Notes under the pieces: model-generated
Seen by the model: the letters and a program-made list of their open reading frames with translations, nothing else
Told to the model about the DNA's origin: nothing
The model's database searches: none
Part shown: piece by piece, positions 11,760 through 14,073 of the stretch
How positions within the stretch are numbered: position 1 is the stretch's first letter
Layout: every line of letters begins with the position of its first letter
Position numbers and translations under genes: made by a program
Origin: Methylomicrobium agile
Lineage (GTDB): Bacteria; Pseudomonadota; Gammaproteobacteria; Methylococcales; Methylomonadaceae
Length of the DNA: 64,000 nt
Reading direction: 5' to 3'
NCBI RefSeq assembly: GCF_000733855.1
Contig: NZ_JPOJ01000001.1
Coordinates: 2,559,001-2,623,000, forward strand

Positions 11760-12068
11760 TAATGAATATCAAACTTTTTCCATGATGCCATTTCAGTTAG
11801 ACAACAATGCAATTTGTATGATTTATATTTTAAAATCATTAGGATATACAATATATTTCACAATCCGGGAGCACCGGAATCTAAATAGATTTTTCATCAA
11901 AAAGGATTAATTTCAAAGCCCCCAGAAAACACTCTCGTTAAATTTATTTTCTCAAGAAAACAAAGAATTCCATTTTTTGTTTAACTGAAAACGATGTATT
12001 GAAAATGTCGCTCGATACCGATAACGGCTAGAGTTTACCGTAATATCTTGTATAACTGGAGAATTGCC
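11760..12068. other. AT-rich leader upstream of the collagen-like gene
   Basis: The 309-bp region is AT-rich with several A and T runs and no gene. It must hold the promoter of the following gene; TTGAAA at 11999-12004 is a possible -35, but the -10 is not clear. GGAGAA at 12058-12063 is a good ribosome-binding site for the ATG at 12069, the start that reads into the poly-C tract. Confidence 0.5.
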
Positions 12069-12076
12069 ATGACACT

Positions 12077-12086
12077 CCCCCCCCCC
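12077..12086 (+). promoter_or_regulatory. Run of ten C after the start codon: candidate phase switch
   Basis: The ATG at 12069, with its ribosome-binding site six bases upstream, reads Met-Thr-Leu-Pro-Pro-Pro and then meets a stop at 12096 because of the ten-base C run. With eleven (or eight) C the frame joins the downstream secreted-protein gene and completes a textbook signal peptide. Slipped-strand changes in such runs switch surface genes in other bacteria; here this is inferred. Confidence 0.6.
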
Positions 12087-12127
12087 GATATACTTTAAAA
12101 AATAACGCCTCTAAACCGTTAGCGCTG

Positions 12128-13450
12128 ATGGTTTCGCTCGCCGCGATGGCGGCTTCGCCAACCGCGCTCGGCGAGCCGACGCTAGTGGGCGACACCTACA
12201 TCAAAACCGGTGTCTCCAAAAATTTCGGCAAAAAGAATCAACTCCTGATCGTGGCCGGCAGCACCAAAGGCGTGCTCGAATTCGATCTGGAAAAATCCAC
12301 GCCGGCCACCGCTTCCGTTTCCAGGGCCACGCTGAGAGTCTTCGTTACCAAGGTCAAAGGAAAGTCGGCCGGCAAGTTGCAAATCCAGGCGATCAATCTC
12401 GATCAGAACGCGCTCAACGATATTTCGGAAACAAATCTGAACGCCGGCTCCAATCTCGCTCTCGGCGATATCGTCACCGAAATTCCGGGGGTCAATACCG
12501 CCAAGGTCAACCAATGGCTGGAATTTGACGTGACCGACGCGCTCAAACTCGCCATAGAAAAAGATACGCCCGACAAATTAATCGCCTTCGCGCTGATCAG
12601 TACCGATACGCTTAGCCTCAGCCTCGAAAGCAAGGAAAGCAAAGCGTCCGGACATGCGGCCACCTTGAATATCGTTTATTCCACGGTAGGAACGGCGGGA
12701 GCGCCGGGAACCATCGGTCCGCAAGGCGCCGCTGGTCCGCAAGGCGCAGTGGGCCCGCAAGGTCCGGCCGGCGGCGGCGCAGGCTCGGTAGGTCCGCAAG
12801 GTCCGCAAGGCGCAGTGGGTCCGCAAGGTCCGGCCGGCGGCGGCGCAGGCTCGGTAGGTCCGCAAGGTCCGCAAGGCGCAGTGGGTCCGCAAGGTCCGGC
12901 CGGCGCGATCGGTCCGCAAGGGCTGCAAGGTTTGGTCGGTCCGCAAGGGCTGCAAGGTTTGGTCGGTCCGCAAGGTTTGCAAGGCGTAATCGGCCCGCAA
13001 GGCGTGCAAGGTCTGATCGGTCCGCAAGGCCCCATCGGTCAGTTGCTTGGCACTGTCGTGAAAACAACTGAAATCTTGAACCCGGTAGCCGGACAACTTA
13101 TAAACGCGACTTGCGATCCGGGGCAAATTCTGGTTGGCGGTGGCCTATTGACTCCCGTGCTGGCAAACGTGTTGCCGCTGATCAACGCCCCCCTACTAAA
13201 CGGCAGCGGGCAGGCGACCGGCTGGTCGGGAGCGTTCGGCTTGTTGAATACTAATGTTACCGGTAACTTGGTTAGTGGAGTTGTAGATATTCTCGGCGCA
13301 ATACTTGGCGGCCTTACCGGGTCGCTCGAAAATACAGCAATCACCGGACAAGTCGCCGGCATTGTGAATAGCCTGTTGCCACTACCAACGGCCGCCCCCA
13401 CCCAGCCATATACTGTCTACGCGCTCTGCGGCCAACCGGCGGACTCTTAA
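12128..13450 (+). CDS. Secreted DNRLRE and collagen-like repeat protein
   Basis: As read, 440 residues from an internal ATG; the natural start is probably 12069, out of frame at present because of a ten-base C run (460 residues if eleven C). The signal peptide core is [19 protein letters not shown]. Residues about 19-185 form a DNRLRE-like beta-sandwich ([23 protein letters not shown]). Residues about 190-305 are Gly-X-Y collagen repeats rich in GPQG. A C-terminal domain with two Cys follows. Collagen-like bacterial proteins usually form trimeric stalks for adhesion or structure at the surface. There is no cell-wall anchor motif. The gene sits in an accessory island next to an IS element. Confidence 0.8.
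12743..12905 (+). repeat. 66-bp tandem repeat inside the collagen region
   Basis: Units start GGCGCAGTGGG at 12743, 12809 and 12875: two full 66-bp units and a partial third. Each encodes 22 residues including an interrupting GGGAGS. A shorter 27-bp unit (GPQGLQGLV) repeats just downstream. In-frame gain or loss of units would change stalk length. Confidence 0.85.
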
Positions 13451-13471
13451 TCGGTAGAACGGCTTTATCGA

Positions 13472-14073
13472 GCCGGGTAGGTCGGGCAACCGCTTCATCG
13501 TTGCCCGGCATTCGGGGGCAATCTTGCTTCCCACGCTCCAACGTAGGAACGAGAAGTCCCCGCAATGTCGGGCACAAAAAGCGTGCCCGACCTACTCGGT
13601 TTTCCTTCCCCTCTTTAAAAAAGCCGGGTAGGTCGGGCAACCGCTTCATCGTTGCCCGGCATTCGGGGGCAATCTTGCTTCCCATGTTCCAACGTAGGAA
13701 CGAGAAATCCCCGCAATGTCGGGCACAAAAAGCGTGCCCGACTTACTCGGTTTTCCTTCCCCTCTTTAAAAAAGCCGGGTAGGTCGGGCAACCGCTTCAT
13801 CGTTGCCCGACATTCGGGGGCAATCTTGCTTCCCATGTTCCAACGTAGGAACGAGAAATCCCCGCAATGTTGGGCACAAAAAGCGTGCCCGACCTACTCG
13901 GTTTTCCTTCCCCTCTTTAAAAAAGCCAGGTAGGTCGGGCAACAGCTTCATCGTTGCCCGACATTCGGGGGCAATCTTGCTTCTCACGCTCCAACGTAGG
14001 AACGAGAAATCCCCGTAATGTCGGGCACAAAAAGCGTGCCCGACCTACTCGGTTTTCCTCTCCTCCTTTAAAT
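13472..14073 (+). repeat. Four-copy 151-bp tandem array (family C)
   Basis: Units begin GCCGGGTAGGTCGGGCAAC at 13472, 13623, 13774 and, with one change, 13925, an exact 151-bp period. Each has two inverted segments, including GTCGGGCACAAAAAGCGTGC which folds on itself. This fills the gap between the collagen-like and glycosyltransferase genes, which converge. Reading frames in the array are artefacts of the 151-base repetition. The last 30 bases run into a family G fragment. Confidence 0.92.

What the first reader, a model, noticed from the sequence alone, without database searches (positions are those of the whole stretch)
12069..13450. Poly-C tract puts a secreted collagen-like protein out of frame: a candidate phase switch
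The best start (ATG 12069, GGAG at six to eight bases) runs through ten C and stops after nine codons. Eleven or eight C would join it to the downstream frame and create a complete signal peptide ([20 protein letters not shown], then SPTALG). The coding sense after the tract is intact for 440 residues, so this is not decay. Homopolymer switching is established for surface proteins of other bacteria but I know of no such case in this family here.
Basis: partly seen in the sequence, partly recalled or inferred. Interest (0 to 1): 0.85.

Follow-up and report, generated by a model that had tools for sequence, protein, structure and literature searches.

The report
Poly-C tract interrupting secreted collagen-like gene
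In a methane-eating bacterium, a run of ten C's right after the start codon puts an otherwise intact gene for a secreted collagen-like protein out of frame, which may be an on/off switch or a miscounted run in the assembly; two giant surface-type genes in the same genome are broken in the same way near their starts.

Summary
ATG 12069 reads into ten C (12077-12086) and stops after nine codons; the downstream frame is open to 13450 and encodes CBM96/DNRLRE, collagen repeats and a tail. The 25 relative loci inspected all have an in-frame ATG and leader, and none has a C/G run of 7 or more within 190 bases of it. The alignment places ATG 12069 as the homologous start, so 11 (or 8) C is the expected coding length.

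New here: two more large secreted-type genes in this genome are out of frame at a G tract near the 5' end and otherwise open (G11, about 2,890 codons after it; G8, about 3,740). The other eight coding C/G runs of 8 or more are in frame.

Best reading: a slippage-prone on/off tract, one of a small set, caught OFF. Not proven. The genome fits Methylomicrobium agile ATCC 35068, a PacBio-only assembly, so a one-base miscount remains a serious rival. The tract is absent from inspected relatives, and long C runs are common in this group, often inside intact frames. Reads, or the closely related M. album BG8, would decide; neither was reachable. Slipped-strand switching, also of collagen-like proteins, is known; this would be a new member, in a methanotroph.

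The parts
12058..12061 (+). GGAG, Shine-Dalgarno-like, seven bases before ATG 12069
   Evidence: read from sequence
12069..12071 (+). ATG, inferred true start; opens a nine-codon frame in this assembly
   Evidence: leader of relatives lines up with it
12077..12086 (+). tract of ten C, codons 3-6; candidate slippage site
12096..12098 (+). TAA that ends the ATG 12069 frame
12086..13450 (+). downstream coding frame (454 residues plus stop), out of frame with ATG 12069
12086..12172 (+). most of the leader: basic n-region, hydrophobic core, likely cleavage after TALG (by eye, no signal-peptide program was run)
12185..12646 (+). CBM96 / DNRLRE domain
   Evidence: Pfam PF24517 E 1.1e-10; NF033679 E 1.2e-10
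12686..13042 (+). collagen-like Gly-X-Y region with tandem repeat units
   Evidence: Pfam PF01391 E 3.7e-12; tandem repeats
13043..13447 (+). C-terminal part with two Cys, alignable to the G028 relative

Best explanation
The C10 tract just after the start codon is a slippage-prone site that sets whether a secreted CBM96-collagen surface protein is made. With 10 C the ribosome stops after nine codons (OFF); with 11 or 8 C the start joins the leader and the whole protein is made and exported (ON). Slipped-strand mispairing during replication would change the count at high frequency. Shown: the tract, the two frames, the open gene behind it, the homologous start, and two other secreted-type genes broken at 5' G tracts. 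Inferred: that the run length varies in the population, that ON cells export the protein, and that its role is adhesion, matrix or surface coat.
For: Open gene with known domains right after the tract. The leader of relatives lines up with a start at ATG 12069; all 25 relative loci looked at have an in-frame ATG there. Two other large secreted-type genes are interrupted at a 5' G11 and G8 and open for about 2,890 and 3,740 codons after it. Of 11 coding C/G runs of 8 or more in this genome, the three out of frame are in 3 of 4 secreted-type genes and in 0 of 7 others (p 0.024), and lie nearer the gene start as a fraction than the seven in-frame runs that could be placed (1 of 120 orders; 4 of 120 by absolute codons).
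Against: No variation was observed. No tract in the 25 relative loci inspected, and the gene is absent from the one same-genus genome. Long C/G runs are common: 51 of 61 genomes searched have one of 10 or more, and 14 of 30 such runs looked at lie inside a long open frame. A full-length mutS1 is present, which should damp slippage. The assembly is probably long-read only. The statistics are small and were framed after seeing the data.
Confidence: 0.5

Rival explanations
1. Assembly artefact: the true run is 11 C and effectively constant, and the long-read consensus dropped one base. The gene is an ordinary secreted protein.
For: The genome's size and 4 contigs fit M. agile ATCC 35068, sequenced by PacBio only at 210x (PMC4457054). 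A relative with few contigs, G009, has a DUF4347 gene out of frame at both a G9 and a G7, which looks like miscounting. No in-frame coding run of 10 or more exists in this genome as a control.
Against: Eight coding runs of 8-9 in other genes are all in frame; miscounting should not choose secreted-type genes or 5' ends. The G8 break is at a length that is read correctly in seven other coding places.
Confidence: 0.32
2. Loss of function: the run slipped once in the sequenced strain or its laboratory history and the gene is simply off, with no selected switch.
For: No tract in relatives inspected. A different region of the genome is decayed by several frameshifts, so broken genes occur here.
Against: No second lesion in the open frame. 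Three genes broken in the same way at 5' tracts.
Confidence: 0.13
3. Recoding: ribosomal -1 frameshifting or RNA polymerase slippage on the run yields some full-length protein from the 10-C gene.
For: The needed shift is -1 and the run allows perfect re-pairing (sequence). The RNA after the run folds somewhat better than shuffles (z -1.9; 10 of 200 at least as good).
Against: No conserved tract in relatives inspected; the fold begins 26 bases after the run, far for a stimulator; C runs are not the usual slippery type (recalled).
Confidence: 0.05

Closest known systems
Scl2/SclB of Streptococcus pyogenes
   Different: Pentanucleotide repeats, LPXTG-anchored, Gram-positive; here a C run, a CBM96 domain and no match over the SclB cut-off (67.2 against 325 bits, collagen part only)
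C tract of mga in Streptococcus pyogenes
   Same: Reversible switching by one-base changes of a C8 tract in a coding sequence (passages of PMC10330708)
   Different: A transcription regulator, tract near the 3' end, variation shown by sequencing many isolates
PilC and Opa of Neisseria (recalled, no call)
   Same: Surface proteins switched by repeats in the leader-coding part; PilC by a G tract
   Different: Pathogen, unrelated proteins, variation demonstrated
CBM96-collagen proteins of other Methylomonadaceae
   Same: Same domain order and leader; best relative G028, 44% identical
   Different: None of the 25 loci inspected has a C/G run of 7 or more within 190 bases of the start, or a broken start

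Membership tests
Slipped-strand phase-variable (contingency) gene | Repeat tract in the 5' coding part or promoter of sufficient length | tested here: met
   C10 at codons 3-6
Slipped-strand phase-variable (contingency) gene | Change of tract length switches an otherwise intact frame | tested here: met
   11 or 8 C would join ATG 12069 to the open frame; arithmetic only
Slipped-strand phase-variable (contingency) gene | Tract length varies among cells or strains | not testable with these tools
   one assembly, no reads; same-genus genome lacks the gene
Slipped-strand phase-variable (contingency) gene | Reversible change in expression | not testable with these tools
   needs clones and protein assays
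Slipped-strand phase-variable (contingency) gene | Tract kept in relatives | tested here: not met
   25 of 25 loci inspected lack it; supporting rather than strictly defining, as tracts often are strain-specific (recalled)
Scl2/SclB collagen-like adhesin | NF038329 above curated cut-off | tested here: not met
   67.2 bits against 325, residues 201-319 only
CBM96 / DNRLRE domain protein | Domain above curated cut-off | tested here: met
   PF24517 42.0 against 26 bits; NF033679 41.7 against 34 bits

The most novel reading that the evidence does not exclude
A free-living methanotroph switches a set of giant or secreted proteins (CBM96-collagen C10, cadherin/Ig-repeat G11, DUF4347-Calx-beta-RTX G8) on and off independently by 5' G/C tracts, diversifying its cell coat as pathogens do; all three were caught OFF in a laboratory culture.
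Probability: 0.3. Interest if true: 0.75.

Novelty: new member of a known kind. Interest (0 to 1): 0.55.

Why it matters
Contingency loci are studied mostly in host-associated bacteria (recalled). A multi-gene set in a methane oxidiser would point to phage or biofilm pressure on its surface and could explain strain differences in coat and clumping. If instead it is a run miscount, three large secreted-type genes are wrongly broken in a reference methanotroph assembly, which is worth correcting.

Tried and rejected
Internal start at ATG 12128: rejected, no Shine-Dalgarno-like site before it, and it removes the n-region that the relatives have. CTG 12056 start, open through the tract at 10 C: rejected, no ribosome site before it. 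Decay: no second lesion seen. Paralogues with the same leader in the own genome: none; one weak Gly-repeat hit only. Same-genus orthologue: none in G001 at E 0.001. Single-sequence scan of genome contigs: no relative. Plasmid search to name the organism, with 6 kb of one of the three small contigs: one partial hit at 74.8% in Methylotuvimicrobium. A runs (either strand): one of 11 or more. Papers, one open-access library only: 'phase variation' + 'methanotroph' gave 6 papers, seen as a listing, none on this by title; 'methanotroph' + 'slipped-strand' none; 'collagen triple helix' + 'Methylomicrobium' none; 'DNRLRE' + 'phase' gave 7, seen as a listing. The M. album S-layer paper PMC13274458 (abstract and sections 6, 7, 13 and a term search) reports a frameshift (delT) in the S-layer gene of an acid-adapted strain; 'collagen', 'DNRLRE' and 'homopolymer' do not occur in its main text. 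Promoter scan: two overlapping weak + strand sites about 210-240 bases upstream of the ATG and one on the - strand, no terminator, not used. PacBio/homopolymer paper search: 3 listed, none read. No structure prediction and no signal-peptide program was run; mutL was not searched.

Full report
What is there. GGAG 12058-12061, ATG 12069, ten C at 12077-12086, and a stop (TAA 12096-12098) after nine codons. The neighbouring frame is open from CTG 12056 to 13450 and has no ATG, GTG or TTG before 12128. It encodes a signal-peptide-like leader (by eye), a CBM96/DNRLRE domain, a collagen-like Gly-X-Y region with repeat units of 27, 54 and 66 bases, and a tail with two Cys. With 11 or 8 C, ATG 12069 would read straight into this protein. 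CBM96 was defined on an alginate-binding beta-sandwich related to DNRLRE domains (passages of PMC9971899), so a surface or matrix role is a reasonable inference.

The start. Relatives were found in 25 of 237 family genomes (own included) with a profile of the N-terminal part and in 24 loci of named genomes, among them Methyloglobulus morosus, Methylovulum miyakonense and Methylocucumis oryzae. I looked at the starts of 25 of the 29 loci fetched; the four left out (L108-L111) are partial or weak matches, and five of the 25 repeat loci fetched. The starts of the loci were not inspected as such. All 25 have an in-frame ATG with a hydrophobic leader by eye, and none has a C/G run of 7 or more within 190 bases of that ATG; the nearest is a C7 about 200 bases upstream in L106. 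In the alignment the first residue after our tract falls at column 8, so the few residues from ATG 12069 fit the relatives' leader. The C run is thus a peculiarity of this gene. The only same-genus genome held has no match.

The genome. G000 has 4,526,071 bases in 4 contigs; the window is 57% G+C. Its family includes Methylovulum miyakonense (the G025 contig has the same length, 4,687,143, as NZ_KB913025.1). M. agile ATCC 35068 is in print as 4.5 Mb in 4 contigs, PacBio only, 210x (PMC4457054, first of two parts read). I infer that this is the source; it is not proven. M. album BG8 is highly similar to it by ANI (passage of PMC6315193) and was sequenced by 454 and Illumina (PMC3624686, whole text), but no copy could be reached here.

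Audit of runs. Pattern searches of the own genome give 60 C/G runs of 7 or more: 41 of 7, 10 of 8, 2 of 9, 4 of 10, and one each of 11, 12 and 14 (reconciled). I read the surroundings of all 19 runs of 8 or more. Eight are non-coding. Eleven are coding: three out of frame, and eight in frame (C9 in a C5-methyltransferase-like gene; runs of 8 in PAS-, HemA-, Lon-, CobS-, CobW-, TonB-receptor- and IS630-like genes; names by eye). In-frame calls rest on the continuous open frame and on its sequence; the codon score alone was clear on both sides for three of the eight (PAS-, Lon-, CobW-like), one-sided for four, and low for the C9 gene. The IS630-like gene is broken elsewhere, not at its run. Of the 41 runs of 7, 39 were scored: 9 coding in the same frame on both sides, 2 called shifted that are gene junctions, 13 coding on one side only (three inspected further: L134, L149, L158), 15 non-coding. 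L149 has a break at its G7 but lies in a region decayed by several frameshifts, so it is a broken non-surface gene that counts against a clean pattern.

The other two broken genes. G000:C1:3822501, G11: a leader-bearing frame of 118 codons up to the run, then an open frame of about 2,890 codons with cadherin and bacterial Ig domains. The same-genus relative has a continuous 2,702-residue frame and no G run at the place. G000:C1:1996851, G8: 74 codons, then an open frame of about 3,740 residues with the rest of DUF4347 (the match starts at profile position 46), Ig-like, Calx-beta and RTX repeats. Like the gene in the window, each shows one break, at a 5' tract.

Chance or error? The three breaks fall in 3 of 4 secreted-type genes with a coding run of 8 or more and in 0 of 7 others (p 0.024). 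As a fraction of gene length they lie nearer the start than the seven in-frame runs I could place (1 of 120 orders; the IS630-like gene could not be placed, and two genes run off the stretch, so their positions are lower bounds); by absolute codons the rank result is 4 of 120, because the CobS-like run is about 45 codons in. Miscounting should choose neither gene class nor position. But the numbers are small, giant genes make fractions small, the tests were framed after seeing the data, and no in-frame coding run of 10 or more exists here as a control. A few-contig relative, G009, has a DUF4347 gene broken at a G9 and again at a G7, which looks like miscounting. Long runs are common: 51 of the 61 genomes searched, own included, have a C/G run of 10 or more; of 30 such runs read (one per genome, one of them own), 14 lie inside an open frame of 300 codons or more, though one of these, L204, looks out of frame at the run by eye. 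Long runs alone do not mark switches.

Reading. I give 0.5 to a true slippage switch, 0.32 to a miscount, 0.13 to loss of function and 0.05 to recoding. Even if the true count is 11, a run of that length at codons 3-6 is a likely slippage site (recalled from other bacteria), although a full-length mutS1 is present (mutL not searched). Scl2 of S. pyogenes is the nearest precedent in mechanism and protein type (passage of PMC3022705), and the mga C tract shows reversible C-run switching (passages of PMC10330708). My searches found no report of this in methanotrophs, within one open-access library.

Noticed in passing
G000:C1:3822147-3831168 (L061 from 3148; L169 248-9269): Giant cadherin/Ig-repeat gene split by a G11 at codon 119; the same-genus relative is a continuous frame without the G run.
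   Followed up: partly
G000:C1:1996627-2008067 (L125 from 1278; L168 328-11768): Giant DUF4347 / Calx-beta / RTX gene out of frame at a G8 after 74 codons, then open for about 3,740 codons.
   Followed up: partly
G000:C1:3157069-3157075, minus strand (L158): A DUF4347 paralogue (3,302-residue frame, 59% identical over the matched part) has a C7 between an AAGGAA ribosome-site-like sequence and its ATG; a length change would alter the spacing.
   Followed up: no
L055 3143-3152 and L059 2965-2976 (own genome): Two intergenic copies of an inverted repeat (GGTACGC...GCGTACC) carry G10 and C12 in the loop, so the run length differs between copies.
   Followed up: no
G000:C1:2451114-2451134 (L057 3115): C10 directly followed by T11, just after a gene that looks like a TolC-type outer membrane protein; the T run is the only A/T run of 11 or more.
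   Followed up: no
G000:C1:1843661 (L149 about 1363-2404): Decayed region where PepSY-like and dioxygenase-like pieces lie in several frames, including a break at a G7.
   Followed up: partly
window 13471-14072: Four copies of a 151-base tandem repeat directly after the collagen-like gene (96% matches).
   Followed up: no
L184 1759-1767 and 1895-1901 (relative G009): A DUF4347 gene out of frame at both a G9 and a G7; may be sequencing error or a switch.
   Followed up: no
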